Source: a virus. Taken from it: a stretch of 32,834 nt of DNA. Position numbers and translations under genes: made by a program. Below are positions 13,075 to 32,834 of this stretch, piece after piece (positions within the stretch are counted from its first letter, which is position 1; each line of letters opens with the position of its first letter). The stretch is from IMG/VR virus record IMGVR_UViG_3300014839_001409, positions 1-32,834 of that record. One strand, written 5' to 3'. The notes below the pieces were generated by a model. It had not been told where the DNA came from and ran no database searches. It saw nothing but the letters and a program-made list of their open reading frames with translations.

Positions 13075-13655
13075 TGCCTAGCCCGAAGACTCCGAGCGCG
13101 GCCCTGGTGGCACGCCGCCAGGCGAAGGTGACGCTCAACCACGCCGCGCTCGACGCCCTGACCATGGGCATCGCCGACGGGCTCGCCGACCTTGGCGACG
13201 CCATCATCGCCGACGCCTCGAGCAACGCCCCGCGCGATCCGGACATCGCCGCCAAGCGGGGCGTGCCGATGATGAAGGGCACGGGTCACTGGGGCGTGTT
13301 TGTCGACGGCAAGCAGGTCAGTGGCGAGCCCGGCAAGCCCAAGGGCCTAACGGTCGTTGCCGGCCAGGTCGTGCTGTGGGTCGGTTTCGGCTCGCCGCTG
13401 TCCCACTTCGCCGAGCGCGGCACCATCAAGGAACCGCCGCACCCCTTCCTGCTCCCGGCCGTCGAGAGGTTCGTCCCTGGCACCAAGAAGTTCGTGCTGC
13501 CGGCCATGGAGGCACGCGCCGCCGGCGCCGAGGCCAGGACTGCGGTCCTGGCGGCCGGCGGGACCACGGCCCAGGCGGCCCAGACTGCGCGCAAGGCGAA
13601 GAGCAAGGCCTGGAACCGGGTCTCGGCCGCCCTGAATGCGGAGAGCGGGCTGTGA
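13074..13655 (+). CDS. HK97 gp10-like tail-component protein
   Basis: 193 residues. DALTMGIADGLADLGDAIIADAS near residues 24-46, GHWGVFVDGKQVSG, VVLWVGFGSPLSHFAERGT and PHPFLLPAVERF give the layout of HK97 gp10-like neck/tail completion proteins: an N-terminal helix, a central beta sheet, and the 'HFAERGT...PHPFL' signature. It is complete. It likely caps the tail tube end or forms part of the neck. The next GTG overlaps its stop. Confidence 0.8.
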   Translation: MPSPKTPSAALVARRQAKVTLNHAALDALTMGIADGLADLGDAIIADASSNAPRDPDIAAKRGVPMMKGTGHWGVFVDGKQVSGEPGKPKGLTVVAGQVVLWVGFGSPLSHFAERGTIKEPPHPFLLPAVERFVPGTKKFVLPAMEARAAGAEARTAVLAAGGTTAQAAQTARKAKSKAWNRVSAALNAESGL

Positions 13656-20131: not shown

Positions 20132-20133
20132 AC

Positions 20134-20358
20134 ATGGCAGACGTACCAGCGATGACCGCTGAGGTGGCGGCGCAGCTGAAGATCGACACCGACATCCAGA
20201 CCGCCCAGGCGCGGCTGATCGAGGCCGTGAAGGCAGGGCACGCGGTCCTCGCCGCCGAACCCGGCCACACATGCCCCTACTGCCAGCCATTGAGCGACCT
20301 CGCGGCGGCAGAGGCAGCGCGGAGCGCCGCACTGCAAGCGAAAGCCGGGAACCCCTGA
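20134..20358 (+). CDS. Small protein of unknown function with CPYC motif
   Basis: 74 residues, starting three bases after the tail-tip gene. Mostly helical (VAAQLKIDTDIQTAQARLIEAVKAG, LAAAEAARSAALQAKA), with a central HTCPYC pair that could bind metal or form a disulfide. It has no signal peptide or membrane segment, so it does not look like a holin. Gene order after the tail tip could suggest a tail-fibre assembly or late accessory role, but nothing more can be said. Confidence 0.65.
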   Translation: MADVPAMTAEVAAQLKIDTDIQTAQARLIEAVKAGHAVLAAEPGHTCPYCQPLSDLAAAEAARSAALQAKAGNP

Positions 20359-20531
20359 TGACCGACCAGCCGACGCCCAGCCCCGAAGTCATCACGCCGG
20401 CCGTGCCGCCCGATCGCGACAAGGCCGATCCTGTGCTGGGTCAGCACGACCCGACCCTCACCATCGAAACCGACGTCGACGGCCAGGCTGTGGTGGTCGT
20501 GGTATCGGCGCCCCCGGCCAAGAGCAGCTAG
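20358..20531 (+). CDS. Small hypothetical protein
   Basis: 57 residues, ATG overlapping the previous stop (TGATG). Pro-rich N-terminus, then charged residues, a DPTLTIETDVDGQAVVVVVSAPP strand pair, and a short basic end. The last gene of the late plus-strand operon. No family recognised and no membrane segment long enough for a holin. Its stop overlaps by CTAG the stop of a small minus-strand frame. Confidence 0.55.
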   Translation: MTDQPTPSPEVITPAVPPDRDKADPVLGQHDPTLTIETDVDGQAVVVVVSAPPAKSS

Positions 20532-20662
20532 GGCGCCCCCGCCACCGTCAGGGTCCAGGAGCACTCCGAGTTGACCTCGACGTGGTAGGGCCCGGTCGTG
20601 TTCGCGAGATAGATGGTCGTGCTGTCGTTGCCTGAAGCGCCCAGCGCGTGGCGATGCCCCAC
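20528..20662 (-). pseudogene. Small minus-strand frame resembling the end of a secreted beta protein
   Basis: A 44-residue frame starting at GTG 20662, with GGAAGGAG 8 bases upstream, and ending convergently with the phage operon. The sequence IYLANTTGPYHVEVNSECSWTLTV resembles the final beta strands of larger secreted or surface domains. The same frame stays open about 90 bases further upstream without a start before a stop. It may be the remnant of a longer gene or a genuine small protein; the evidence for either is modest. Confidence 0.35.
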
Positions 20663-20910
20663 GGTCGTCGCTCCTTCCGGGACAGACGCCGTGATAGATC
20701 CGGGTGACGGAGCCGCAGATAAGCCGTAGCTAATCGGCGCTCGCTACCGTTTGGCCGCCCCCGCTCCGCGCGTCCGCTGCGTCGTGAAAGCCTGACGGAC
20801 GGCGACGGGGCTTCGGGCCAAATAGCGTAGGCGACGGTCACCGCAACATCCTTCCAGCGGAGCATCCCGACGCTCCCAGTGTTGGAGGATGACACCCGGG
20901 AATGGCCGCG
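20532..20910. other. Junction region between late operon and RM cargo
   Basis: Apart from the 44-residue minus-strand frame, no supported gene is seen. A longer minus-strand frame (20548-20895) is open but is low-complexity and Arg/Ser rich, like noncoding GC-rich DNA. No terminator with a U-tract and no tRNA or attachment repeat could be found. This is where a terminator for the late operon and for the convergent Res gene would be expected. Confidence 0.4.
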
Positions 20911-23415
20911 TCATCCCTCCCGCTGGTAGAGGTTGAGTAGCTCGGCGGTGCTCGCGAGCGCATCGACCTTGCTGCGGATCGCCAACTGGTCTAGGTGGAG
21001 CCGACGGTAGCGAGTGCCGATCTTGGCGACCAGATCGACGTGGCCGAGTCGTTCGGCGTGGGTTGCGGCGTAGGAGGACAAGCCCTTCGCCTTGCCGACG
21101 GCGTCGAGCTTCGTGTGGTCATGGGGGTCGATGATGTCCACGACTAGGCGCTCGCCGTCCTCGCGCACGACGAGGAAGTCCGGGAAGAAGCCGCGCCAGA
21201 TGTTGCCGTCGCGCCAGGGCACGCAGAACCAGCCCTCGCGCTCGCCGTTGCGCAGCCAGCCGATCGTGCTCGGCTTCGCCGTCTCGGGACCGATACTGTC
21301 GGCCTCCCAGCCGTTGAGGTAGACGAGCGCCTCGCCATCGTCGGCGTACACGTGGCCCGGCAGGCTCGCTGTCCCCCGGCGGAAGATCGCCACTTCGGGC
21401 AGTTTGAGCGACACCAGCGAAGGGGCCGGGACCTGGCGCAGGATCGCCCGGTAGCGCGCCTGCTTGGCCGCTGACCGGCCCTCGATCGTGCCGCCGTGCT
21501 CGGCGCGCAGGGCGTCGATCCGCGTGCTCGCGTGGGAGTTCACCGCATCCATGACCTCGTCGCGGGACGCGAGGGCAAAGGCTTCGAGACGCGCGACCCC
21601 GATTGAGGCCGGGTCCGCGGCGAGTCTCAGTCGCACATACGCGCTCGCCGCCTCGTTGGTCAGCCGCCGGGCCGCAGCGACGAAGAGCCGCCCGATGCTC
21701 TCCTCGGTGGCCGGCAGCGTTCGCGTCGTGGCCGTGATCGCGCCGCCCTCGCCGAGCACCAGTTCGCCGTGGAGTACGACAATCTCGCCCTGGTCGGTGA
21801 CCTCCTTGGCAAAGTCGGCATCGCCCGCGAGCGCATCGCGCCGCGTGACCAGGAGTGCCGCGACGGCGGCCATCTCGCGCTTGAAGGCGGCAGGGTCGAT
21901 GCCCGAGCTCGAGAGGAAGTTGCCGAGGTCGGCCAGGGTCCTGATCTCCGGGCGCGAGCGCGGCGTCGGGACAAGGTAGGAGGGTACTGCCTCGATGGCG
22001 GTGATCGCCCGGTCGAGGTCGGTGCGGCGGGGCAGGCTAATCGTCTCGCGCCGGGGAGCCACGGTGCCCGCGATCGCCTCGTTCCCCGTGTCGTTGAGCT
22101 TCGTGATGATCGCCCGCACCCCCGCCTCCTCGTAGAAGGGCAGGAACACGAAGGCGGAGTTGAGATCCTCGTTCTCCTCGATCCGGCGCGCCAGCGGTGT
22201 GCGGACCATGCGCCCGATCGTCTGGGCGATCGAGGTAGGATCGACCGCTCGTCGGAACGAGAACATGACCTCGGCGCGCGGGCAGTCCCAGCCGACATCG
22301 AGGCTCGACTTGAAGAACACGACGCGCGCGTCGGTGTCGCCCGCGATCTTGGACGCTTCGATGTAGCGGATCACCCGGCCACCGACGGGCTCGGGCGTGC
22401 CGGTGCCAAAAGCGTGGGTGAAGGCGACGTCGGGCATCGGCCCCGCGACTTCGGTGATGACCCGGATGAGCGCGTCGAGATCGGTCGCGGTCACGTTGGT
22501 GCCCGTCTCGTTCTCGACCTGGACGATCAGCGCGGGCACCACGAGCCGCTCGCCGCCGGCCTGGCCGTAGGCCGCGTGGTAGGCCGCCCAGCCGTCGTGC
22601 GACGCCTTCCAGACCCTCACCGCCTCGGGGAACAGCGCCATCGCGTCGTGCTGGCGTTCGCCCGCAAAGTCGGCGAGCGTCTTGTCCTTGATGAGCCCCG
22701 ACGCCCGGACCTCGTCGGGCGGCACGTCCCACTGGCTGGTCGTGCGCCCCGCGCCCTGGACGACCGCGAGGAATCGCGCAGGCGTCGCGCTGATGCCGAG
22801 CACGATCGGGGCGGCGGGCATCCCCTCCTCGGGGTAGCCCTTGATGAAGCGCTGGATGATCGAGTTGGCCTCGGCGATCTTGCGCGCCTCGGTCATGCCG
22901 CGGTGAGCCTCATCGACGACTAGGTAGAGCGTCTTGGCCGGGTCCTCGATCGTGCGCCGCACGACATCCCAGAAGGTGAAGGTCCTCCCGACCAGCGGCC
23001 CGCGCTTCACGAGGTCGGCCTTGGCCCCGAGCTTCTGGGTGTTGAGGAAGTAGACCCTGCCGGGTGCCAGGCTCTCGGGGTTGAAGGTGCTGTCGATCTC
23101 GGGCAGCAGGTTAAAGCGGAGGTCGCCCAAGGCGTCGAGCATCTTGCCCTGCGTCTGGGCGTTGAGTTCGGGCTTGTCAGTCATCCACAGGAATACCGCC
23201 CCTGGATCGGGCGCGATCCCGTCCTCGACCGAGCCGAAGAGGATAGCCTCGATGACCGCTGTGGCGATGATCGTCTTGCCGGCCCCGGTAGTCGCGGTCA
23301 GACCCACGGCCTGGCGCTGGCCCGAGCCGCCGCGATAGCCGACCTTGGCCGTGTCCAGGCGGCTGAGCAACTCCACGACCGCGTCGGTCTGGAAGTCTTT
23401 GAGGGCGAGTTTCAC
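20911..23415 (-). CDS. Type III-like restriction enzyme, Res (helicase/nuclease) subunit
   Basis: 834 residues, GTG start overlapping the Mod stop. Superfamily 2 ATPase: Walker A ATTGAGKT (41-48), DEAH box VVDEAHRG (166-173), SAT at 209-211, GWDCPRAEVM (374-383) and motif VI QTIGRMVR (397-404). The C-terminus, FFPDFLVV...LVVDIIDPHD (about 743-766), looks like the PD-(D/E)XK nuclease region, but the expected ExK is DIID, so the active site is variant or impaired. With Mod it should form a complex that cuts unmodified DNA after ATP-dependent communication between two sites. It is phage or island cargo, and its strand is opposite to the late genes. Confidence 0.9.
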   Translation of the reverse strand: MKLALKDFQTDAVVELLSRLDTAKVGYRGGSGQRQAVGLTATTGAGKTIIATAVIEAILFGSVEDGIAPDPGAVFLWMTDKPELNAQTQGKMLDALGDLRFNLLPEIDSTFNPESLAPGRVYFLNTQKLGAKADLVKRGPLVGRTFTFWDVVRRTIEDPAKTLYLVVDEAHRGMTEARKIAEANSIIQRFIKGYPEEGMPAAPIVLGISATPARFLAVVQGAGRTTSQWDVPPDEVRASGLIKDKTLADFAGERQHDAMALFPEAVRVWKASHDGWAAYHAAYGQAGGERLVVPALIVQVENETGTNVTATDLDALIRVITEVAGPMPDVAFTHAFGTGTPEPVGGRVIRYIEASKIAGDTDARVVFFKSSLDVGWDCPRAEVMFSFRRAVDPTSIAQTIGRMVRTPLARRIEENEDLNSAFVFLPFYEEAGVRAIITKLNDTGNEAIAGTVAPRRETISLPRRTDLDRAITAIEAVPSYLVPTPRSRPEIRTLADLGNFLSSSGIDPAAFKREMAAVAALLVTRRDALAGDADFAKEVTDQGEIVVLHGELVLGEGGAITATTRTLPATEESIGRLFVAAARRLTNEAASAYVRLRLAADPASIGVARLEAFALASRDEVMDAVNSHASTRIDALRAEHGGTIEGRSAAKQARYRAILRQVPAPSLVSLKLPEVAIFRRGTASLPGHVYADDGEALVYLNGWEADSIGPETAKPSTIGWLRNGEREGWFCVPWRDGNIWRGFFPDFLVVREDGERLVVDIIDPHDHTKLDAVGKAKGLSSYAATHAERLGHVDLVAKIGTRYRRLHLDQLAIRSKVDALASTAELLNLYQREG

Positions 23416-25505
23416 CGCGTCGCCCCCCGCAGCGTTTCGAGGTAGTCGCGGTAGAGCCGGACCGTCTCGATCCCCTCTTGGGGCAGGTCGGCCACGACTT
23501 GGGCAAACGACTCGGGCGAGTCGGCCACGATGAAGACATGCGTGATGTCGGTTCGTGCAGCCAATGCCGCCAGCAGGTCCGGCAGCCCGGCTGGGTCAAA
23601 GAGCACCGCGTAGGGCGAGTGGGCTGGCAGCCCGAGCGGTGCTGTGGGGTCGAGGGCCTCGCGCTCGCCGATCCCGCCGGCGCGGAGCCAGAGCAGCGGC
23701 TCGATCTCGCCATAGCGCAGGCCAAACTCGACCTCGGCAGGATCGAGGTAGTCGAGGCGGAAGAACTCGACGTTGGCCGGAAAGCCCTCCGCGTAGTCGC
23801 GGCCATCGAGATAGGTGCCGGTGAGCGGGGTCCCGTTGCCTTGGACGCCCGTGATCGCGGCGGTGACGCGGGGCTTGGTCGCCATCTCGAACACGCCCGC
23901 AGCCTCGAACTCGGGGTCCCCGTGGAAGTGTCCGGACCGGTTGAGGCGCTCGGCTGCGGTGTAGGTGACCTCGTTGTTGGTGACGAGTACGCAGCGCCGC
24001 TTGCCGCCGTCGCGCTCGTTGAGCATCAGGGTGGCGTGGAGCGTCGTGCCTGATCCCGCGAAGAAGTCCAGGATCAGGGCGCTCGTCCGGTCGCCGATCG
24101 CTACGTCGAGCGCGTCGCGCACGGCGTAGACCGACTTGGGATACGAGAAGGCCCCGCGCCCGCCACACAGTTCGGCCACCAGCGTCGTGCCACCAACGCC
24201 GCCGGCGGTGTGGCGACCACGGTGCCACATCGTCTTGGCGACGCCCCCCGCCTTGGGCGCGAGCAGGACCTCGTTCTGCGGTCCCCGTCCCCGAATCTCG
24301 AGCGTGCCGGCGGCGATCGCGCGGGTCCCGCCCGAGGGCATGTATTTGAGCGTCCAGCGGTCGCGCTCCGCGTCGTAGGAGGAGACAAAGGCGTAGCCCT
24401 GCGCGTGGAGGTCGAGCAGGGTCGCGGCGTTCACATGCCAGATGCCGAGCCGACCGTCGTTGCGCACCGGCCAGGCGAGCCGGTAGTCGCCGTGCGTGGT
24501 CGGGCGAGCGGCCTCGTCCTCGCCCGTGAAAGGCTCGCCCGCGCCCGCGATCCGGCCATCAGCGTCGATGAACACCGGGTAGCAGAGGTTCGGGCGCGCG
24601 ATCCGCGTCCAGGCACTCCCCCGGCGCAGCAGGCTCTCCCACCACGACGCCGAGGTCCTGTCCTCGGGGCCCAGGAAGTCCTCGAAGGTGGCGACCGGGC
24701 CAGCGCCGCCAAAGAACAGGAAGAACGCGTATTCGTCCGCCCGCGCCAGGCCGTCGCTCGATGCGCCCGAGGGGTTGATGCAGATTGTGACCATCTGGCG
24801 CAGGGCCTCTGGGAACATCTGCTCCAAGAGCATCCCGAGGTGGTGGACTTCGAAGCGGTCGATCGTGACGACCATCACGCCGTTCGGGCGCAGCAGCCGG
24901 CGGCCAAGCCGCAGGCGGCGCTCCATGAACGCGAGCCACTTACTGGGTCGCCACGCATCAGCGGGATCCACGAAGTCATTGTTGTAGGACCAGTCGTGCT
25001 CGCCGGTGTTGTACGGCGGGTCAAGGTAGAGGCAATCCACCTTGGCCTCGTAGGCCGCCAGCAGCGCCTCGATCGCGTGGTAGTTCTCGCCCTCGATAAC
25101 GGTGTGGTAGGGCGCGTCCTCGGGGCCGTGGCGGACCGCGTCGATCGGGGTCGGGACCGGGAAGACCGGCTCGGCAAAGTCCTGCTCGACCAGCACCTCC
25201 GAGCGCGCGATCCGCTCGGGTTGCGTGTCCGCTGCCGCGGTCGTCTTCCCGGGCTCCGCGACGACGAGCAGGTCCGCGCCGTCGATCGAGCGCACCCGGA
25301 GCCGGCGCGGGGTCATCGTGCGCCGCTCCCAGACGACCGAGCCGGGCCTGATCGGGGCCGATAGTGCCCGCACGTTCTCGGGCAGGTGGCGCTCGAAGAC
25401 GAGGCCCCAGTCGAGGCGCTTCTTCATCTCCGCGACTTCGCAGGCCAACTTGTCGCGCAGGGCCGAGTCGTCTATCTGGGTGATGAGAGTCTCGATAGTC
25501 GCCAT
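23412..25505 (-). CDS. Type III-like DNA adenine methyltransferase, Mod subunit
   Basis: 697 residues. The catalytic motif LDPPYNTG is at 161-168, followed by YNNDFVDPADAWRPSKW and the AdoMet motif LDFFAGSGTT at 479-488; FSYPKS lies near 453-458. This order (DPPY before FxGxG) and length are typical of Type III Mod. The long insert between the motifs probably carries target recognition. The product methylates adenine on one strand of the site and gives the complex its specificity. It is first in the two-gene operon; upstream AAAGG is the ribosome site. No repeat tract for phase variation was noticed in it. Confidence 0.93.
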   Translation of the reverse strand: MATIETLITQIDDSALRDKLACEVAEMKKRLDWGLVFERHLPENVRALSAPIRPGSVVWERRTMTPRRLRVRSIDGADLLVVAEPGKTTAAADTQPERIARSEVLVEQDFAEPVFPVPTPIDAVRHGPEDAPYHTVIEGENYHAIEALLAAYEAKVDCLYLDPPYNTGEHDWSYNNDFVDPADAWRPSKWLAFMERRLRLGRRLLRPNGVMVVTIDRFEVHHLGMLLEQMFPEALRQMVTICINPSGASSDGLARADEYAFFLFFGGAGPVATFEDFLGPEDRTSASWWESLLRRGSAWTRIARPNLCYPVFIDADGRIAGAGEPFTGEDEAARPTTHGDYRLAWPVRNDGRLGIWHVNAATLLDLHAQGYAFVSSYDAERDRWTLKYMPSGGTRAIAAGTLEIRGRGPQNEVLLAPKAGGVAKTMWHRGRHTAGGVGGTTLVAELCGGRGAFSYPKSVYAVRDALDVAIGDRTSALILDFFAGSGTTLHATLMLNERDGGKRRCVLVTNNEVTYTAAERLNRSGHFHGDPEFEAAGVFEMATKPRVTAAITGVQGNGTPLTGTYLDGRDYAEGFPANVEFFRLDYLDPAEVEFGLRYGEIEPLLWLRAGGIGEREALDPTAPLGLPAHSPYAVLFDPAGLPDLLAALAARTDITHVFIVADSPESFAQVVADLPQEGIETVRLYRDYLETLRGATR

Positions 25506-25541
25506 GAAGGCCTTTCGCGACGATGAAGACGGAACAGCGAC

Positions 25542-25569
25542 AGTGTGGTAGCGGCGGTGGCGAAGTCAA
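25542..25569 (-). promoter_or_regulatory. Possible weak promoter for the Mod-Res operon
   Basis: On the minus strand, TTGACT (25564-25569) lies 16 bases before CACACT (25542-25547). The first box is a good -35; the second matches only half of a -10. It lies 37 bases before the Mod ATG in the divergent gap, so it is reasonable by position but weakly supported. Confidence 0.3.
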
Positions 25570-25687
25570 CCGCGCCGACCCCATCGCAGGATGATAGACG
25601 GCCGCTTCGTCCGCAGCTCATGATTGGCACCAGGATCCGCCGCTCAGCGCCTGAAGCGTGCGGCGCCGTGCCCATAAGGACGCAAAG

Positions 25688-26611
25688 GTGGTCTACGAGC
25701 CCAAGCGAATCCTTGTCGTGGTCAAGACCTACCCGAACCCGAGCCAGACGCACATCGAGACCGTCTGCTGTGCTGGGGTCGACCTGGACACGGGTGGCTG
25801 GGTGCGCATGTACCCGATCACATTCCGCAGGCTGGCCGATAACCGGTTCAAGAAGTACCAGGTCATCGAGTGCCAGGCGACCAGGCCACGCAACGACGCC
25901 CGACCGGAGAGCCTCAGGGTCGACCAGGACTCGATCAAGCTCGTCGGCCAGGTCATCCCCTCGTCCGACCGGTGGCGCCGGCGGATGGCGCTGCTCCCGG
26001 CACCGTCGGGTTCCCTCGAGGAGATCAAGGCGGCGAATATCGCAGCCGACGTCAGCATCGGCATGTTCCGCCCGAAGGCCATTCGTCGCCTAGTCAAGGA
26101 GCACGCGGACGCGTGGACGGAGAAGGAGCGGACAGCGCTCCGCCAGGAACGCCTCGGACTCGGCGAGGAGGAGATTCGGGAGCTGAGCGAGCTCGAGCAG
26201 ATCCCGTGGAAGTTCAGCTACGAGTTCTACTGTAATGACGCCGGATGCGGCGGGCACAAGCTCCAGATCTTCGACTGGGAGCTGGGCCAGTCCTATCGCC
26301 GCTGGTCGAGATCCGATCCCTTGCGATGGGAGGAGATGATCCGGCAGAAGTACGGGCGCGAACTGCCAGCCAAGGACCTACACCTGGTCGTCGGGACCCT
26401 TGCTGCTCACCCGAAGACCTTCGTGATCATCGGGCTCGTCTACCCGCCCCGGTCGCAGATGGACGGTGCTTACGTCCAGCAGTCCCTGGATCTCATGGGC
26501 CAGGAGCGAGCGGTGACAGGCAAACGGATCGGCCTCGAAGCACAAGAGGCAGACGCGCTCGCTGGAGATGAGCGGGACGAGGCTCTGGAGCTCTTCCCGG
26601 ACGAGGGCTAG
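25688..26611 (+). CDS. Conserved protein of unknown function, DUF488-neighbour family
   Basis: 307 residues. A start at GTG 25688 is chosen because AAGGA lies 7 bases upstream; an in-frame GTG at 25658 would add 10 basic residues with no site. Signature-like stretches: RILVVVKTYPNPSQTHIETVCC at the start (split), WVRMYPITFRRLADNRFKKYQ near 40, and ELPAKDLHLVVGTLAAHPKTFVIIGLVYPP near 235-265. CNDAGCGGHKLQIFDWEL gives a possible metal site (C..C..H). From memory, such proteins often occur with DUF488; that pairing is seen here, with the genes converging and overlapping by 234 bases. Function is unknown, perhaps nucleic-acid related. Confidence 0.75.
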   Translation: MVYEPKRILVVVKTYPNPSQTHIETVCCAGVDLDTGGWVRMYPITFRRLADNRFKKYQVIECQATRPRNDARPESLRVDQDSIKLVGQVIPSSDRWRRRMALLPAPSGSLEEIKAANIAADVSIGMFRPKAIRRLVKEHADAWTEKERTALRQERLGLGEEEIRELSELEQIPWKFSYEFYCNDAGCGGHKLQIFDWELGQSYRRWSRSDPLRWEEMIRQKYGRELPAKDLHLVVGTLAAHPKTFVIIGLVYPPRSQMDGAYVQQSLDLMGQERAVTGKRIGLEAQEADALAGDERDEALELFPDEG

Positions 26612-26866
26612 GCGATCGCGGTATCCATCGGCGAACCGATCCCAATCCGAAACGACGGCACGGAGTTCACGCGGCGCACCGAGAGCTGGGACGGAGAGAT
26701 AGCGGATCCCCGCTGCCGCTAGCGCCGCGTCGAGCGACTTGCGGCGGAATTCCGGCCGTCTGGACATAGGCGTCTCGCGGGTGTCGACGAGAACCGAAAC
26801 GTCGGCGGCGGCGAGGGTTTCGACGAGACGTTCCAGGCTGGCGCCCTGGTAGCCGATCGTGAACAT
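26378..26866 (-). CDS. DUF488 family protein
   Basis: 162 residues. It opens with the characteristic MFTIGYQGASLERLVETL, then VSVLVDTRETPMSRRPEF and the signature RVCLLCFEADPFACHRSLLAHEI at about 104-126, with the conserved C..E...CHR arrangement. The family is of unknown biochemical function; the Cys/His set suggests metal binding or catalysis. ATG 26866 gives the usual family start. A GTG at 26950, overlapping the upstream gene's stop, would add 28 residues and cannot be excluded. The 3' 234 bases overlap the convergent unknown protein. It is downstream of the small gene in the same strand. Confidence 0.88.
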   Translation of the reverse strand: MFTIGYQGASLERLVETLAAADVSVLVDTRETPMSRRPEFRRKSLDAALAAAGIRYLSVPALGAPRELRAVVSDWDRFADGYRDRLALVREELQSLVPLISSERVCLLCFEADPFACHRSLLAHEIQGLLDVSTVHLRPGRVDEPDDHEGLRVSSKGPDDQV

Positions 26867-26946
26867 CGCATCGGGCGCGCTCCGACCCTGGCTCCGGGAG
26901 GTCGCCTTGGAGCGGTCAGGTCCGAGGCTCGGTCGTACCTCCACGG

Positions 26947-27174
26947 TCACGCGTGAGCCTCGACAGGGTGGTCGGCGAGATGCACGTCGTCGGCCGGCCA
27001 CGGGAGCCCCTCGACGTCTTGGTCCGCTTCGTTGCGTGCCTCCCACTCACCCCGCGAACAGACCCACACGACCGGGAAGTCCCGGCCCATTTCGACTCCG
27101 GTCAGCGCCACCCGCTCCAGCAGGTCACCGAATGCGGTCCGGACTGTGACGGCATCGCCGCGCTTGATCTCCAT
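26947..27174 (-). CDS. Small conserved protein with DFPVVWVC motif
   Basis: 75 residues, ATG preceded by a strong AGGAGGT. The sequence KRGDAVTVRTAFGDLLERVALTGVE opens a beta-rich SH3-like fold, followed by RDFPVVWVCSRGEWEARNE and an acidic, Trp/Pro end. It resembles small actinobacterial-type proteins of unknown role. It probably forms an operon with DUF488 (17-81 bases apart, depending on the chosen start, or coupled by GTGA). A longer frame extending upstream is noncoding, since the ribosome site marks the start clearly. Confidence 0.75.
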   Translation of the reverse strand: MEIKRGDAVTVRTAFGDLLERVALTGVEMGRDFPVVWVCSRGEWEARNEADQDVEGLPWPADDVHLADHPVEAHA

Positions 27175-27297
27175 TGACCACCTCCTAACCTTCATCGTAT
27201 GCACGACTCCAAACTTCCTCTGGCGTGGCACTGCTCTCCGGCTTCGCCACGAACTGCCACGGAGGCCGTCAACCCGCACGCGGGGTCCTACTGACAC

Positions 27298-27356
27298 TAT
27301 GGCTTGTGCTGTGGCATTGGCGGTGCCATAATGATGACCAGACGTAGCCATAGCCA
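27298..27356 (+). promoter_or_regulatory. Promoter with inverted and direct GCCAT repeats before the DUF5343-like gene
   Basis: TTGTGC (27304-27309) and CATAAT (27327-27332) are spaced by 17 bases, as in a sigma-70-type promoter. Around them, TATGGC (27298-27303) pairs with GCCATA (27325-27330), TGGCA (27312-27316) with TGCCA (27324-27328), and TAGCCA is repeated directly at 27345-27356. The overlap of repeats with the core promoter suggests an operator. AGGAG follows before the gene. The region also lies between divergent genes and could control the minus-strand operon. Confidence 0.55.
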
Positions 27357-27369
27357 TTAGGAGTCGGTG

Positions 27370-28146
27370 ATGACGGACGAACCCACGAAGCGCTACGCGC
27401 CGTATCTGGCGTGGCGCACCTTCTTCAACTTGATCCTGCAGCTCGACGAGAAGGGACTCCCGACCCGGATCGACCGGAGCTTCCTTAGCCAGCGGTCTGG
27501 CGTCGATCAGGGCTATCTCATCGCCACCCTCAAGGCCTTCGCCATGATTGCGGACGATGGGACGGTCCTCGATCCGTTGAAGGACCTTGTCGGGAACAGG
27601 GACGGGCGGCAGGCGCTTGTGGCGCAGGTTCTCCGCTCCCACTACCCCGAAGTGTTCGGGCTGCCGTCGAATGCCACCCAGGCGGAGTTGGACGAGGTCT
27701 TCCGCGAGGTCTTCGCGCAGACCGGCGCGACGCTGCGAAAGGCGCAGACGTTCCTGCTCCATGGCGCGGCTTTCGCCGGCATCAAGCTGAGCCCGTACTT
27801 CAAGACGCCTCGCGGTGTCCCAGGAGCGGCTGGGCAGAGACGGACGAGGAAGCGGGCAATGCCCCGCGGATCAGCCGCCGCCACGGCCACGGTCACGTCG
27901 ATCAGCATCCCGGCTGAGACGAGCATCGCAGCGCGCCCCGAGGCGACCGCCGATGAGATGAAGCTTCGGTACTTTGAGGTTTTGCTCAAGAAGGTCGACT
28001 CGGCGGACGAGACGGACGCTGACCTCCTGGACCGGATCGAGCGCCTGATCAGCGTCGACCGACCTGCGGCGCACAGGGCTCAGCGGAGGCAGTCACAGGA
28101 TGCGGCCACCGCCGAACCCGCCGACGAACACCCCACCGAGGCCTGA
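27370..28146 (+). CDS. DUF5343-like protein
   Basis: 258 residues, ATG after AGGAG (an in-frame GTG three bases earlier is less likely). Residues 1-140 fit the DUF5343 pattern: APYLAWRTFFNLILQLDEKGLPTRIDRSFL (split), GYLIATLKAFAMIADDG, and LVAQVLRSHYPEVFGL with a later AQTFLLHGAAFAGIKLSPYFK. The rest is an Arg/Ala/Ser-rich linker and a coiled C-terminus. Such proteins look like winged-helix regulators in accessory regions. It is led by the promoter at 27298-27356 and precedes the replication genes, so it may be a phage regulator. Molecular function is not established. Confidence 0.72.
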   Translation: MTDEPTKRYAPYLAWRTFFNLILQLDEKGLPTRIDRSFLSQRSGVDQGYLIATLKAFAMIADDGTVLDPLKDLVGNRDGRQALVAQVLRSHYPEVFGLPSNATQAELDEVFREVFAQTGATLRKAQTFLLHGAAFAGIKLSPYFKTPRGVPGAAGQRRTRKRAMPRGSAAATATVTSISIPAETSIAARPEATADEMKLRYFEVLLKKVDSADETDADLLDRIERLISVDRPAAHRAQRRQSQDAATAEPADEHPTEA

Positions 28147-28184: not shown

Positions 28185-28625
28185 ATGCGCCATCCCGACC
28201 CCTTGATCATGTCGGCGGATATCGCCCGGATGGCAGCAGAGCGCCCCGAGCTCGATGGGGAGCTCGTTCAGGCGATCTACCAACACCTCGTTCTAATCGA
28301 AGGACGTCAACCAGGGTTGGGAGAGTTGCGGGAGTACGTCGACCGCGTCTCCAGCCTCGACCAGGACACGCTCCGGCAGCGCCTCGGTTTGGCGGCGCGT
28401 CGCAGACGTCCCGCTCGCGCACCAGCCAAGCCAAGTCGCGGTCGCCCGAAGGGCACGGGTCTGCTGACGGCGGCGATCGTCCTGGGCGGCAACAGAGTCC
28501 TGCGGACCGAGCTCCAGGGCCGCACCCCGACCCAGGAGGCGCTGGCCTCGCGGCTTGAAGTCTCGGTCCGCACCCTCCAGGACTTCCTGAAGGCGAACGG
28601 CATGGGGTGGCCGCTCGCGGATTAG
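28185..28625 (+). CDS. HTH-like protein of unknown function
   Basis: 146 residues by the first ATG (an alternative, 28209, removes eight). There is no clear ribosome site for either. The C-terminal segment, PTQEALASRLEVSVRTLQDFLKANGM (split), is a probable helix-turn-helix. The middle, Arg/Ala/Pro-rich RRRRPARAPAKPSRGRPKG, would bind nucleic acid nonspecifically (an AT-hook-like GRPKG is present). It may assist replication or regulation. No family recognised. Confidence 0.55.
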   Translation: MRHPDPLIMSADIARMAAERPELDGELVQAIYQHLVLIEGRQPGLGELREYVDRVSSLDQDTLRQRLGLAARRRRPARAPAKPSRGRPKGTGLLTAAIVLGGNRVLRTELQGRTPTQEALASRLEVSVRTLQDFLKANGMGWPLAD

Positions 28626-28700: not shown

Positions 28701-28967
28701 GTGCCATCGCTGACGATCAGACTTCCCGAACGAGCCGCCGCAGCACTCCAGGACCTCGCGCAGGTCGAGTGCCGTTCGACGCGGGATCAGGCTGCGTTCC
28801 TGATCCTCGAGGGACTCCGGGCCGCGTCACCGGCGACGGCGCCCGCGGCGGGGCCGCGACGGCGGCAGGACCGCCGGCCGAGCGGGAAGGCAGCTGCATC
28901 TGGTCGCTCCGTCCGGACAGCGCGCAGGCAGGAGCCTGAGAACGCCGTTGAGTCGACGGGCACATGA
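28701..28967 (+). CDS. Ribbon-helix-helix (CopG/Arc-like) DNA-binding protein
   Basis: 88 residues, GTG start. SLTIRLPERAAAALQDLAQVECRS is the beta strand plus helix of an RHH fold and RDQAAFLILEGLRAA the second helix. The tail is basic and disordered. It should act as a dimeric repressor or DNA-organising protein. It overlaps the primase gene (ATGA), so both are co-translated, consistent with control of phage replication. No toxin partner is adjacent. Confidence 0.65.
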   Translation: MPSLTIRLPERAAAALQDLAQVECRSTRDQAAFLILEGLRAASPATAPAAGPRRRQDRRPSGKAAASGRSVRTARRQEPENAVESTGT

Positions 28968-31555
28968 ACGCCCCCGTCGAGAGCGCCCTGGCGATGGCAG
29001 CTGCGGGCTGGGCAGTGATCCCGTTGCACACGCCGATCGACGGCGCGTGCGATTGCCATCGGCCCGATTGCTCCTCGCCGGGCAAGCATCCCCGGACGAA
29101 GAACGGCCTGAGCGACGCGACCACGGAGGCCGATCAGATCCGCATGTGGTGGAGCATGTGGCCCACCGCGAACATCGGCGCGGTGGTTCCGGACGACCTC
29201 ATCGTCGTCGACGTGGACGTGGCCGACCTCGCCGCGGTCTTCCGGAGCGACGAGCTGCCGAGAACGGCGACCTCGAGGACGGGTCGCGGCCGGCACCTGA
29301 TCTACCGCACCTCTGCCCCGATCCGGCCAAAGGTCGGCGTCCGAGAGCATGTCGACCTCCGGGGGCCCGGCTCCTACATCGTCGTCCCGCCCTCGCTCCA
29401 CATCAGCGGCGTACGCTACGAGTGGGTCCTCCCGATCGAGGACGGGATCGCGGACGCGCCGGCATGGATCGCCGACGCCGTCCGATCACCTCGGACGGCA
29501 GGCGATCGTCCCGAGGATTCAGACGCCATCCCAGACGGCCAGCGGAACGCGACTCTGGCCTCGCTGGCGGGCACGATGCGTCGCCGGGGCATGATCGTCG
29601 CCGAGATCGAGGCCGCGCTGCTGGCGGTGAACGCCGGCCGCTGTCGACCGCCCCTCCCTGATGACGCGGTCCGGGGCATCGCCGCCAGCGTCGGGCGCTA
29701 CCCGCCGGGCGACGGGCGGACCTCCCCGCCGTCGCCACTCACTGACGCCGGCGATGACAGTGATCCTGCCGCGACCGACGACCGCGACGGCGCGCCGGAG
29801 TCGGAGCCTGGCGATCCGGGACCGGCGGAGCCCGCGGCGGGCGGGAAGCGATCCCAGGCGACCATGATCCTCGACCTCACGGCGGACGTCGAGTTCTTCC
29901 ACACCGCGGACGACGTCGCCTACGCCCGTATCGAGCGTGACGGTCATCATGAGGTCTGGCCGCTCGGCTCGAAGTCCCTTCGGGCATGGCTGTCCCGCCG
30001 GTTCCACCAGGCCTACGGCCGAGCCGCTGGCGGCCAGGCCCTACGCGATGCGCTCGACGTGCTGATGGGGCGGGCGCTCTTCGAGGGGCTCGAGTGCCCG
30101 GTATACGTCCGGGTCGCCGGTGATGGCCACGACATCTACCTCGACCTGGGCGACCCGCTCTGGCAGGCGGTCAGGATCTCCCCCGACCACTGGGAGATCG
30201 TCGCCGATCCACCTGTGCGGTTTCGACGCCCGAAGGGCCTGCTCCCTCTCCCGGTACCCGTCCGCGGCGGCAGTGTCGATCAGCTCCGTCGGTTCGTGAA
30301 CGTCCGTGATGACGACCAGGACAACCAGTGGCGCCTGTTCATCGGCTGTCTTGTCGTCGCCTTCCGGCCGAACGGTCCGTATCCGATCCTCGCCCTCAAC
30401 GGCGAGCACGGCTCGGCCAAGTCCACCGCGGCCAAGATCCACCGTCGCCTGATCGACCCCAACAAGAGCGTCACCCGCGCCGCGCCGCGTGATGAGCGAG
30501 ATCTGGCCATCGCGGCCACCAACGGCGCCGTCATCTCCCTCGACAACCTCTCGACCATCCCGGACTGGCTCAGCGACACGCTCTGCCGGGTTTCGACCGG
30601 ACTGGGCTTCAGCACTCGCACCCTCTACGAGAACGACGAGGAGACGCTGTTCGACGCCTGCCGCCCGATCGTCATCAACGGCATCGGCGTCCTGGGCACG
30701 CGCAGCGATCTGCTCGACCGCACCATCGAGCTCGAACTGCCGCGGATCCCGGACGACCGCCGCCAGGATGAGGCGCGGTTCTGGGCCGCCTTCGATCGCG
30801 AACAGCCGGCGATCCTCGGCGCGCTCCTCGACGCGGTGTCGGGTGCGGTCGGTCGGCTGGACCTGGTCCAGCTCGAGCGGGCGCCGAGGATGGCCGACTT
30901 CGCCCGCTGGGTCGTCGCCGCCGAACCGGCGCTGGGCTGGCCCCCCGGCTCGTTCCTGAAGGCGTACACGGGCAACCGCGACGCCATCCACGAGATCGCC
31001 CTCGACGCGGCGGTGATCTATCCGCCGATGCGCACGCTGCTGGAATCGGGCGAGTTCCTCGGGACCGCGACGGATCTTCTCGACCGCCTTGCGAGCATCG
31101 TGGGCGAGTCGGCCACGCGTCGAAGGGGCTGGCCAGGCAACGCGACGTCGCTGTCGCGGGAGCTCGCCCGGATCGCGCCCAACCTCCGATCGGTTGGCAT
31201 TGAGGTCGAGAAGCGCCGCGAGTCCCACGGGCGCCGCCTGATCGCCATCCGGACGGTCCCGGAAACGCCGTCACCCGCGTCACCACCGTCACCGGCATCG
31301 GGCGCAGGTGACGCAAGGTCGCTGGAAGGTGACGGGACGGGTCTGTGGGATGAGGCGAGCGTCACCGAGGATCGTGCTCGCGGTGACGAGGGTGACGCTG
31401 GTGACGGTCTTCTATCTCCTCCATCGCCTGTTGACCTCGACGTCGCCCGCGAGGCGTTGCGGATCTTTGCCGACGACCTGACCGACGAGTCGGCAGCACG
31501 CCTCAAAGCCGTGGTCGATGGGCCAGACGGCTACGAGTGGGGCGGCCTCGCGTGA
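28964..31555 (+). CDS. Primase-polymerase fused to a superfamily 3-like ATPase
   Basis: 863 residues. N-terminal prim-pol domain: a CDCHRPDCSSPGKHP zinc-type segment (28-43), catalytic DVD at 83-85 in IVVDVDVADL, GRGRHLIYR (107-115) and VDLRGPGSYIVVPPS. Residues about 180-235 resemble a PriCT-like helical domain. The ATPase has GEHGSAKST (480-488) and a Walker B-like VISLDNL with D527. A Ser/Pro and Gly/Asp linker (about 765-820) separates a C-terminal helix. It probably primes, unwinds and replicates phage DNA. Its 3' end carries the GTCACC cluster described separately. It begins by ATGA overlap with the RHH gene. Confidence 0.88.
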   Translation: MNAPVESALAMAAAGWAVIPLHTPIDGACDCHRPDCSSPGKHPRTKNGLSDATTEADQIRMWWSMWPTANIGAVVPDDLIVVDVDVADLAAVFRSDELPRTATSRTGRGRHLIYRTSAPIRPKVGVREHVDLRGPGSYIVVPPSLHISGVRYEWVLPIEDGIADAPAWIADAVRSPRTAGDRPEDSDAIPDGQRNATLASLAGTMRRRGMIVAEIEAALLAVNAGRCRPPLPDDAVRGIAASVGRYPPGDGRTSPPSPLTDAGDDSDPAATDDRDGAPESEPGDPGPAEPAAGGKRSQATMILDLTADVEFFHTADDVAYARIERDGHHEVWPLGSKSLRAWLSRRFHQAYGRAAGGQALRDALDVLMGRALFEGLECPVYVRVAGDGHDIYLDLGDPLWQAVRISPDHWEIVADPPVRFRRPKGLLPLPVPVRGGSVDQLRRFVNVRDDDQDNQWRLFIGCLVVAFRPNGPYPILALNGEHGSAKSTAAKIHRRLIDPNKSVTRAAPRDERDLAIAATNGAVISLDNLSTIPDWLSDTLCRVSTGLGFSTRTLYENDEETLFDACRPIVINGIGVLGTRSDLLDRTIELELPRIPDDRRQDEARFWAAFDREQPAILGALLDAVSGAVGRLDLVQLERAPRMADFARWVVAAEPALGWPPGSFLKAYTGNRDAIHEIALDAAVIYPPMRTLLESGEFLGTATDLLDRLASIVGESATRRRGWPGNATSLSRELARIAPNLRSVGIEVEKRRESHGRRLIAIRTVPETPSPASPPSPASGAGDARSLEGDGTGLWDEASVTEDRARGDEGDAGDGLLSPPSPVDLDVAREALRIFADDLTDESAARLKAVVDGPDGYEWGGLA
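31270..31405. repeat. Symmetric iteron-like cluster of GTCACC/GGTGAC, candidate replication origin
   Basis: Nine copies of one hexamer occur within 136 bases. GTCACC is at 31270, 31279 and 31288 (9-base period). GGTGAC, its complement, is at 31307 and 31328; GTCACC is at 31361; and GGTGAC is at 31382, 31391 and 31400 (9-base period). The outer triplets form a large inverted repeat. The coding strand uses TCA for Ser and GGT GAC for Gly-Asp, although TCA is rare elsewhere in this DNA. This favours selection at the DNA level. Lambda-type phages carry origin iterons inside a replication gene. Confidence 0.55.
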
Positions 31556-31761
31556 CCAGCCAGGCGCCGCACCAGCAGATTGCCGCCGGCATGAACGGTC
31601 TCGCTTCGACCGACCTGCGGGACCGTGGCGGCCGTGACCCCGTCCCTCGACCGATCAACCCCGTCATCCTCGCCCTCGTCGCGGCGCTTCGGGATGTTGA
31701 AGAACGGCGTGGCCGAGGTAAGGTGCTGACCACCTTGACCAGCAAGAGGCCGGCAGCATGA
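31552..31761 (+). CDS. Small hypothetical protein before the integrase
   Basis: 69 residues by the GTG that overlaps the primase stop (GTGA); a second in-frame ATG at 31591 is possible. The sequence is basic in the middle (DRGGRDPVPRPINPVILALVAALRDVEERRGRG). Such short genes between replication and integrase genes may be excisionase-like directionality factors, but no HTH is clear. Its stop overlaps the recombinase ATG (ATGA). Confidence 0.5.
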   Translation: MTSQAPHQQIAAGMNGLASTDLRDRGGRDPVPRPINPVILALVAALRDVEERRGRGKVLTTLTSKRPAA

Positions 31762-32834
31762 AGCGTTCTCTCCCCCAATCGCTCGACCAGGTCGGCGGCA
31801 TGCGGGCGGCGCGCTGGTTCCGCGAGTCGACCGCCGGACAGTGGGACAACTTCGGGCCTGATGCCCAGCGCGAACAGCAGGACCGCGCCATCGTCCGGTA
31901 CGGTCTCGTTGACAGCGCCCTCGAGTGGTCCGTTGCCTCCTCGGGCTGGACCTCCGCTTGGCGCACGCCCACATGGGAGGCCATGGTCGCCTCGGCGCAG
32001 GCGGGTGCCTTTGACGTGCTCGTCGTCGGCTACGTGAGCCGCTTCCTGCGCAACCTCAAGCAGACCCTGATCGCGGTCGAGGATCACCTGCACGCGGCCG
32101 GTGTGGTGGTCCTGTTCGCCGACGAGCGGCTGCTTTCATCGGATCCAAGCAGCTGGGACCAGTTCGTCCGGGAAGCTCACGAGGCCGAGGCGTACAGCCG
32201 CAAGCTCTCGAAGCGCGTTGGTGAAGGCTATGCCGCCAAGCGCCGTCGGCTCGGGGTCCCCGGTGGCAACCGAGCCCCGTACGGCATCATCCGCGAAGGC
32301 AAGCCTTCGACGCTCCGGATCGACGAAGCGACTGCCCCTACCGTTCGTCAGGCCTACGAGCTGGCCGCCACGGGGCTCACGGACTGGGAGGTGGCAGCCC
32401 AGGTCCACTTGGCCAAGACCCACGTGGGCGAGATCCTGACCAACCCAATCTACGCGGGCCGGTTGCGCACCGGCGAGGCAGCCGGAGTCCCGCCGATCGT
32501 CGAGCCCGCTGTTTGGTCGCGCGTCCAGGTCATGCGCGCCATGCGCCGCACCCGAACCCCCGGTCGGACCGTGAAGCGCAACTACCCGCTGCGCCTGCGT
32601 TGTTCTGGCTGCGGACGCTACCTCTATGGCGACACCGGGCGCTACCGTCATCCGGCGCCTACATGCGACGCGTTCATCGCTGCGACCCCGCACCTTCGGC
32701 GCCGGTACAGCGCCGCGCACGACAAGCGGGTCCAGGGCCACTCCTATCCCCAGGACTGGTACGAGGACGCGATCGGTGAGCTTCTCGAACAGGTCGGTGG
32801 CGTCGACGAGAGGAGCATCTCAGAGGCCGTTCGC
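31758..32834 (+). CDS. Large serine recombinase (phage integrase), truncated by window end
   Basis: 359 codons remain open at the last base. The catalytic domain has ARWFRESTAGQ (Ser in FRES at about residue 24), then PDAQREQQDRAI, VVGYVSRFLRNL near 90-101 (conserved Arg) and KLSKRVGEGYAAKRRRLG near 147-164 (end of the catalytic domain). Next come the recombinase domain (GNRAPYGI, ILTNPIYAGRLRTG) and a zinc ribbon, LRCSGCGRYLYG...TCDAF, near 281-304. It should integrate the phage between attP and attB. The ATG overlaps the previous stop. If the sequence is circular, its frame continues in phase into the HTH frame at base 1. Confidence 0.92.
   Translation, partial: MKRSLPQSLDQVGGMRAARWFRESTAGQWDNFGPDAQREQQDRAIVRYGLVDSALEWSVASSGWTSAWRTPTWEAMVASAQAGAFDVLVVGYVSRFLRNLKQTLIAVEDHLHAAGVVVLFADERLLSSDPSSWDQFVREAHEAEAYSRKLSKRVGEGYAAKRRRLGVPGGNRAPYGIIREGKPSTLRIDEATAPTVRQAYELAATGLTDWEVAAQVHLAKTHVGEILTNPIYAGRLRTGEAAGVPPIVEPAVWSRVQVMRAMRRTRTPGRTVKRNYPLRLRCSGCGRYLYGDTGRYRHPAPTCDAFIAATPHLRRRYSAAHDKRVQGHSYPQDWYEDAIGELLEQVGGVDERSISEAVR

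What the first reader, a model, noticed from the sequence alone, without database searches (positions are those of the whole stretch)
20911..27174. Type III RM plus DUF488 cargo between tail and replication genes
The RM pair, the unknown protein, DUF488 and the small protein occupy 6.3 kb mostly opposite to the phage operon and are flanked by a gene remnant. This arrangement suggests a self-contained defence cargo that was acquired as a block. The conserved unknown protein with DUF488 may add a function to the RM system.
Basis: partly seen in the sequence, partly recalled or inferred. Interest (0 to 1): 0.55.

Follow-up and report, generated by a model that had tools for sequence, protein, structure and literature searches.

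The report
Phage defence cargo with clamp-tethered candidate
A temperate phage, probably of Chloroflexota, carries two bacterial defence-type modules side by side, an ordinary restriction-modification system and a poorly known gene pair whose proteins look built to act on DNA at the replication clamp.

Summary
The five genes are real and at the stated places: Res 20911-23415, Mod 23412-25505, unknown protein 25658-26611, DUF488 26378-26866, small protein 26947-27174. They sit in a variable cargo site of a temperate phage, between tail and replication genes; relatives carry other defence-type genes there. They are not one block. The Type III RM segment (about 20860-25616) is found without the DUF488 pair in a related phage and, at 89.5% DNA identity, in a Chloroflexi MAG. 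The 'remnant' next to Res contains a host-type dispersed repeat (20717-20810). The DUF488 pair is the existing PADLOC candidate PDC-M19. It has no general tie to Type III RM (0 of 131 Mod loci), although adjacency recurs in alphaproteobacterial elements. The new point concerns the unknown protein's family: it models as a tandem OB-fold ssDNA-binding protein, and its relatives carry two short peptides of the bacterial sliding-clamp-binding type (C-terminal 26 of 42, inner 33 of 42; shuffled 0.4 and 1.8). I infer that it brings the phosphatase-fold DUF488 enzyme to DNA at the clamp. In this phage both peptides are degenerate and both genes have run past their usual ends into each other.

The parts
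20717..20810 (.). 94-bp dispersed repeat at the left edge of the cargo
   Evidence: 86% in phage G010 and 88% in phage G001; core also in L278; matches in 19 of 177 genomes of the class of the Chloroflexi MAG, up to 4 places in one genome
20860..25616 (-). extent of the RM module as shown by DNA similarity (outer limits of two comparisons)
   Evidence: 20924-24140 at 89.5% and 24712-25616 at 80% to Chloroflexi MAG L055/L277; 20860-25515 at 77% to phage G001; the gap 24140-24712 lies inside Mod
20911..23415 (-). Res, Type III restriction subunit (834 aa)
   Evidence: Pfam ResIII; 84% identical to G001 Res
23412..25505 (-). Mod, Type III N6 adenine methyltransferase (697 aa)
   Evidence: PADLOC PDLC03645 5e-133; Pfam N6_N4_Mtase
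25658..26611 (+). PDC-M19B: tandem OB-fold protein; homologous core ends near 26464 (residue about 269), the last 48 residues are antisense to DUF488
   Evidence: PADLOC 8e-53, residues 16-267; AlphaFold2 model pLDDT 77; OB-fold matches; codon-position GC changes at the core end
26144..26161 (+). degenerate inner clamp-motif-like peptide QERLGL
   Evidence: near the position of the inner QxxLF motif of homologues
26477..26494 (+). degenerate C-terminal clamp-motif-like peptide QQSLDL
   Evidence: lies just after the homologous core, where homologues have the terminal QxxLF
26378..26866 (-). PDC-M19A: DUF488 protein (162 aa from this ATG); homologous core ends near 26473
   Evidence: Pfam DUF488 3.2e-27, PADLOC PDC-M19A 1.1e-31; the 20 residues invariant in A8, incl. 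C109, C117, H118, R119, present; model pLDDT 87
26378..26611 (.). 234-nt antisense overlap of the two M19 genes
   Evidence: annotated convergent homologues overlap by at most 62 nt with stops, or not at all
26947..27174 (-). small protein (75 aa) upstream of DUF488, same strand
   Evidence: phrog_37576 1.6e-5, function unknown; no relative in the loci fetched by then
27367..28146 (+). DUF5343 protein; right edge of the cargo lies between 27175 and 28185
   Evidence: Pfam DUF5343 2.4e-7; no relative in the fetched loci, whereas the next gene 28185-28625 has relatives in phages G014 and G007
28964..31555 (+). phage primase
   Evidence: phrog_1156 3.4e-26; matches in 4 of 16 related records
31758..32834 (+). 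serine recombinase, runs off the record end (temperate lifestyle)
   Evidence: open ORF that reads like the start of L030:7329-8831, which is Pfam Resolvase 2.4e-11; this ORF itself was not scanned

Best explanation
A temperate phage, probably of Chloroflexota, carries two separately acquired host-protecting modules in a variable site between its tail and replication genes. Module 1 is a complete Type III restriction-modification system: Mod methylates adenines in its site, and Mod-Res cuts DNA that lacks the mark, so that a lysogen is protected from other phages. Module 2 is the PDC-M19 pair. I infer that its OB-fold subunit binds single-stranded DNA and, through two sliding-clamp-binding peptides, docks on the beta clamp; there it positions the DUF488 subunit, a phosphatase-fold enzyme with invariant Cys and Cys-His-Arg residues, to process DNA ends or strands at replication or repair sites, most usefully those of an invader. 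Shown here: gene content, module boundaries, variability of the site, predicted OB fold and phosphatase-like fold, and motif statistics for the family. Inferred: clamp binding, the chemistry of DUF488, the defence role, and that the pair still works in this phage, where both peptides are degenerate and both reading frames run past their usual ends.
For: RM: families and close copies in a related phage and a Chloroflexi MAG. Separate modules: similarity ends at 25515/25616, M19B absent from the fetched G001 stretches and the MAG genome. Variable site: RmrA + Type III RM in G001, HKD/Snf2 helicase in G010, Type IIG RM + HerA-like in G007, another Type III RM in G006. Temperate: serine recombinase after primase. 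M19B motif: among 42 representatives under 70% identity, of 67 full-length homologues, Q..[LIM][FL] within the last 14 residues in 26 (shuffled mean 0.42, max 3), 100-145 from the end in 33 (1.76, max 7), both in 21 (0.015, max 1); real-protein controls 2 and 6 of 99 neighbours, 1 and 0 of 48 DUF488 partners. With the published revised consensus 14, 12 and 4 of 42 (shuffled 0.15, 0.61, 0.00). Fold: ssDNA-binding OB proteins; DUF488 resembles PTP-type phosphatases and diphthine synthase.
Against: The window's own M19B has no strict motif. M19 neighbours are mostly not defence genes, and M19B is common in Chloroflexota genomes (47 of 400), so housekeeping repair is possible. The strictest consensus QL[SD]LF is met by only 1 (C-terminal) and 3 (inner) of 42. 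Homologues are not independent, so shuffling overstates significance. Fold matches are weak for DUF488 (best Foldseek E 4.9e-3), and its VIA Z of about 9 is only slightly above the usual best for models without a clear match. No interaction or activity was tested.
Confidence: 0.55

Rival explanations
1. One composite defence island acquired as a block, with the DUF488 pair acting as an accessory of the Type III RM.
For: Recurrent adjacency: DUF488-M19B-Mod-Res on one strand in a Rhodobacter MAG (L276, Mod 37%, Res 33%), and M19B followed by a Mod start at the contig end of L144. In Haloquadratum plasmid PL100 an M19B-like gene lies by two DNA methyltransferase genes.
Against: RM alone in G001 and in the Chloroflexi MAG; 0 of 131 Mod loci with the pair; no overlap of 47 and 3 in 400 Chloroflexota genomes; no Type III genes annotated beside the pair in the 12 plasmid and phage loci read.
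Confidence: 0.15
2. M19 is not a defence system but a replication or repair factor (gap or end repair at the clamp) that mobile elements carry for their own DNA.
For: Presence in 47 of 400 Chloroflexota genomes; neighbours mostly metabolic or mobile; OB-fold relatives include RecO, PriB, SSB, RPA; clamp-type motifs are typical of replication and repair proteins (passages).
Against: Patchy: 4 of 296 Actinomycetota and 9 of 398 Pseudomonadota; found on plasmids (23 records) and Gordonia phages (7 records), next to an immunity repressor and integrase in Eviarto.
Confidence: 0.35
3. The M19 pair in this phage is decaying: loss of both usual stop codons added antisense tails to both proteins, and the clamp peptides are degenerate.
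For: 234-nt overlap against at most 62 nt or a gap in annotated convergent relatives; the tail of each frame has the codon-position GC pattern expected of the antisense strand; no strict motif.
Against: Both frames are open and the DUF488 invariant residues are intact; inner QERLGL and tail QQSLDL fit a loose hexamer form.
Confidence: 0.4

Closest known systems
PADLOC candidate system PDC-M19 (A and B)
   Same: Both genes match, M19B 8e-53 and M19A 1.1e-31; adjacent and convergent as in many relatives
   Different: Antisense overlap of 234 nt; degenerate motifs; PADLOC lists it only as a candidate, and the held papers do not mention PDC-M19
Type III restriction-modification (Mod PDLC03645 subtype)
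   Same: Adjacent Mod and Res; Mod full-length match 5e-133
   Different: Res is divergent from PADLOC REase_III models (2.3e-7); nuclease region PD...[DE]PH...K in place of a plain (D/E)xK (the plain form is recalled)
Phage hotspots of antiviral systems (P2/P4 type, PMC9122126; listing and abstract start seen)
   Same: Variable cargo site with different defence-type genes in related phages
   Different: Other phage group and probable host (Chloroflexota), site between tail and primase, host-type repeat at the edge
DuOB and DUF488 families; RapZ-C-DUF488-DUF4326 clade (Burroughs and Aravind 2023, recalled, paper not held)
   Same: DUF488 with an OB-type partner; phosphatase-like fold; predicted DNA-end processing in conflict systems (recalled)
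   Different: Pfam DuOB is only a sub-threshold match (E 0.059); the clamp-type motifs are my observation and I could not check whether that paper notes them
Archaeal ParB-CTPase-DUF488-HTH fusion that binds CTP (PMC12704722, passages seen)
   Same: DUF488 beside an M19B-like gene in Saccharolobus and Haloquadratum
   Different: No ParB domain in the phage protein (162 aa)

Membership tests
Type III restriction-modification | Adjacent mod and res genes in one operon | tested here: met
   Mod stop and Res start overlap by 4 nt (23412-23415), same strand
Type III restriction-modification | Mod of the N6/N4 methyltransferase family with DPPY-type motif | tested here: met
   Pfam N6_N4_Mtase, PADLOC MTase_III; DPPYNTG and FAGSGTT in the sequence
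Type III restriction-modification | Res with helicase motor and PD-(D/E)xK nuclease | tested here: inconclusive
   ResIII helicase match, TGAGKT and DEAH motifs in sequence; nuclease region conserved as PD...[DE]PH...K in 105 aligned loci, not a plain (D/E)xK
Type III restriction-modification | Methylation and restriction activity at an asymmetric site | not testable with these tools
   needs long-read methylome or cleavage assay
PDC-M19 | M19A (DUF488) next to M19B | tested here: met
PDC-M19 | anti-phage activity | not testable with these tools
   only a candidate in PADLOC; no held paper names it
beta-clamp-binding proteins | QL[SD]LF or Q-phi-x-[LM]-[FL] type peptide in the protein family | tested here: met
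   revised consensus C-terminal 14 of 42, inner 12 of 42 against shuffled 0.15 and 0.61; consensus from passages of PMC13254535
beta-clamp-binding proteins | same peptide in the phage protein itself | tested here: not met
   no strict match in the window protein; only QERLGL and QQSLDL
beta-clamp-binding proteins | physical binding to DnaN | not testable with these tools
   no complex prediction or assay available
Phage defence hotspot | same site, different defence-type cargo in related phages | tested here: met
   RmrA, Type IIG RM, HKD/Snf2 helicase, Type III RM variants
Phage defence hotspot | relative with an empty site | tested here: inconclusive
   no cargo-free relative seen among the records read; most relatives are fragments

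The most novel reading that the evidence does not exclude
M19 is a clamp-tethered mobile system: a tandem-OB ssDNA-binding protein that occupies the sliding clamp with two peptides, in the manner of DNA polymerase III, and brings a phosphatase-fold DUF488 enzyme that chemically alters DNA ends at active forks, so that invaders that replicate through the host clamp expose themselves. In the phage studied the two genes also share 234 nt on opposite strands.
Probability: 0.3. Interest if true: 0.8.

Novelty: new member of a known kind. Interest (0 to 1): 0.5.

Why it matters
As a locus it is another phage cargo site with defence-type genes, here in a poorly known phage group. The wider point is testable: a widespread, unexplained gene pair (bacteria and archaea, chromosomes, plasmids and phages) gets a concrete molecular prediction, docking on the replication clamp through two short peptides, which can be tested by changing a few residues. 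If right, it would place an uncharacterised enzyme family at the replication fork and suggest a way to sense or treat replicating foreign DNA.

Tried and rejected
Gene remnant: ORF 20548-20895 and a peptide from another frame of that stretch gave no family or tblastn match. RNA element: no Rfam match in 20100-27500, and the repeat does not fold better than shuffles on either strand (z 0.93 and -0.29). Promoters and terminators: no more than in shuffles. tRNA: none in the window. PCNA-type motif in archaeal relatives: the Sulfolobus C-termini only loosely resemble one and the Haloquadratum one does not, so not claimed. M19 as a general companion of RM: rejected as a rule; of 99 neighbour proteins scanned (chosen by hand, mostly from the 292 of at least 130 aa listed) only 3 matched N6_N4_Mtase (one is the L276 Mod) and 3 ResIII. 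Sequence search of the PDB with both M19 families: no hit. Close relatives of the phage's own M19B in viral contigs with the single protein: none; a second search with a closer alignment gave 13. Papers: DUF488 search listing of 25 papers, none on this pair by title; PDC-M19 none; DuOB terms nothing relevant among the 40 listed; DUF488 with clamp gave only PMC12704722, where DUF488 occurs once, in a ParB-fusion context. Not done: the G010 1136-aa gene, the G014 repeat-rich giant ORF (called RHS/YD-like by eye) and the window's recombinase ORF were not scanned by family libraries; only 40 of the 80 genomes with a Mod locus were searched for M19B; the shuffled control ignores relatedness; genome tallies use samples of 400, 296 and 398 genomes.
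Full report
What is in the window. The record is an IMG/VR virus contig of 32834 bases, a fragment. It has terminase, portal, major head, tape-measure and tail genes and a primase, and ends in an open reading frame (31758-32834) that reads like the serine recombinase of a related phage, so the phage is probably temperate. Between tail (ends 20131) and the replication genes lie Res, Mod, an unknown protein, DUF488 and a small protein, as reported.

Identity of the genes. Mod is a Type III methyltransferase (PADLOC PDLC03645, 5e-133) and Res has the ResIII helicase domain. The unknown protein and DUF488 are the two halves of a PADLOC candidate system, PDC-M19B (8e-53) and PDC-M19A (1.1e-31). The small protein is phrog_37576, function unknown. 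So the 'conserved unknown protein with DUF488' is an already catalogued candidate pair, but I found no paper on it in the held library.

The cargo site. A terminase search gave 28 related viral loci. I searched 16 of these records for the primase and tail proteins: 4 of 16 had the primase and 1 of 16 the tail protein, and I fetched stretches of eight. After the tail genes, phage G001 carries an RmrA homologue (2.6e-110) and a Type III RM close to ours (Mod 69%, Res 84%); G010 a helicase of the HKD+Snf2 kind (1.6e-54); G007 a Type IIG restriction-methyltransferase (6.2e-234) and a HerA-like protein; G006 a more distant Type III RM (Mod 8.3e-208); G014 a giant repeat-rich ORF that I judge by eye to be RHS-like. 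None of the fetched stretches has M19B or this DUF488 type. This is a variable cargo site; no cargo-free relative was seen.

Two modules, not one block. Against the Chloroflexi MAG fen_1076 (L055/L277) DNA similarity covers 20924-24140 (89.5%) and 24712-25616 (80%); against G001 it covers 20860-25515 (77%). In the MAG the Res match is split between two frames. Neither similarity reaches the M19 pair, and M19B is absent from that MAG genome and from the G001 stretches fetched. The RM module therefore has its own history.

The left edge. The stretch 20717-20810 is 86-88% identical to sequences in G010 and G001; its core occurs in one more viral contig, L278. In all four contigs it lies within about 200 bp of the 3' end of a cargo-region gene. 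It also matches 19 of 177 genomes of the class to which the Chloroflexi MAG belongs, at up to four places in one genome. I read it as a dispersed host-type repeat, perhaps a point of exchange, and as support for a Chloroflexota host. It is not a recognisable gene remnant.

Is M19 tied to Type III RM? Of 80 genomic and 51 viral Mod loci, many with short flanks, none has M19B or DUF488 within the fetched DNA. M19B is in 47 of 400 Chloroflexota genomes (some are weak partial matches), 4 of 296 Actinomycetota, 9 of 398 Pseudomonadota, and 2 of 40 genomes chosen for a Type III Mod (40 of the 80 available were given); the Mod type is in 3 of the same 400 Chloroflexota genomes, with no overlap. Yet tblastn of Mod and Res on 103 M19 loci (redundant) hit L276 (Rhodobacter MAG; L200 is the same place), where DUF488, M19B, Mod and Res follow on one strand, L144, where M19B is followed by a Mod start at the contig end, and weakly L263, where DUF488 and M19B are followed by three long genes (961, 616 and 636 aa). 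The aggregate scans list one DrmD, two GmrSD and two Type III MTase matches among the 99 neighbours; that the DrmD-, one GmrSD- and one MTase-like match belong to L263 is my reading of the lengths. The association is thus occasional and may be clustering of defence genes.

What the pair looks like. With 12 relatives M19B models at mean pLDDT 77. Foldseek's best PDB matches are OB-fold DNA-binding proteins (telomere end-binding protein 2.1e-4, HIN domains, SSBs, RADX); VIA-align gives LEF-3 Z 9.0 (rmsd 2.2, 75 aligned), PriB 8.7 (2.4, 81), RecO 8.6 (2.2, 72), and two-domain alignments with LEF-3 (Z 8.9, rmsd 6.4, 176 aligned) and HIN domains at larger rmsd. DUF488 models at 87; Foldseek ranks DUF442 and dual-specificity phosphatases first, weakly (4.9e-3), and VIA-align diphthine synthase at Z 9.1 (rmsd 2.9, 109 aligned). 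That agrees with a published placement of DUF488 among rhodanese-phosphatase enzymes, with predicted DNA-end processing in conflict systems, which I recall but could not read. An archaeal ParB-DUF488-HTH fusion binds CTP (PMC12704722, passages).

The clamp-type peptides. Aligned homologues end in QISLF, QLSLF, QAELF, QPSLF, QADLF and the like, and carry a second such peptide about 104-142 residues from the end. Of 67 full-length homologues I kept 42 under 70% identity: C-terminal motif in 26, inner in 33, both in 21; shuffled sequences give 0.42, 1.76 and 0.015. At 45% identity: 11, 14 and 8 of 21 (shuffled 0.20, 0.86, 0.00). With the revised published consensus: 14, 12 and 4 of 42; with the strictest form QL[SD]LF only 1, 3 and 1. 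Among 99 neighbour proteins 2 and 6 have the motif at these places, among 48 DUF488 partners 1 and 0. The consensus, and the fact that DNA polymerase III has both an internal and a C-terminal clamp motif, come from passages of PMC13254535; PMC9690074 passages place the bacterial motif at the C-terminus. Linkers before the last motif vary in length and sequence, as expected of a short docking peptide. That these peptides bind the clamp is an inference.

The phage copy. The homologous parts of M19B and DUF488 end near 26464 and 26473, where convergent relatives stop (annotated overlap at most 62 nt with stops, or a gap). Here both frames run on, into 48 and 31 residues antisense to the partner, with the codon-position GC pattern of an antisense frame. 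Its peptides are only QERLGL and QQSLDL, and strict forms are absent. DUF488 keeps all 20 residues invariant in A8. The pair may be working with unusual tails, or decaying.

Verdict. An ordinary Type III RM and a catalogued candidate pair, separately acquired, in a defence cargo site of a temperate phage. The clamp-docking prediction for the candidate family is the part worth testing.

Noticed in passing
window 20911-23415, residues 745-775 of Res, and 105 aligned loci: The nuclease region of this Type III Res subtype is conserved as PD...[DE]PH...K (P745 in 104, D746, [DE]763, P764, H765 in 105, K775 in 104 of 105 aligned loci), a departure from a plain (D/E)xK.
   Followed up: partly
window 20717-20810: A dispersed repeat shared by phages and by genomes of the probable host class (19 of 177), up to four places in one genome.
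   Followed up: partly
L051 5980-7277 (Gordonia phage Eviarto): The M19 pair sits beside the immunity repressor and integrase in Gordonia phages; 7 records match.
   Followed up: no
L292 2480-4670 (Haloquadratum walsbyi PL100): An M19B-like gene is next to a protein that begins like ParB and ends in a DUF488-like part, and to two DNA methyltransferase genes.
   Followed up: no
L034 15579 to L035 3471 (phage G014): The cargo site of this relative holds a very long repeat-rich ORF, RHS/YD-like by eye, followed by a 192-aa ORF.
   Followed up: no
window 3886-5196: A ParB-type/DNA methyltransferase-like protein (by eye) upstream of the terminase is kept in many related phages; not scanned by family libraries.
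   Followed up: no
L055 around 13596-13629: In the Chloroflexi MAG the Res gene matches in two different frames, a frameshift or assembly error.
   Followed up: no
L137-L147: In many viral contigs DUF488 lies upstream of M19B on the same strand with overlapping frames, so two gene arrangements of the pair exist.
   Followed up: partly
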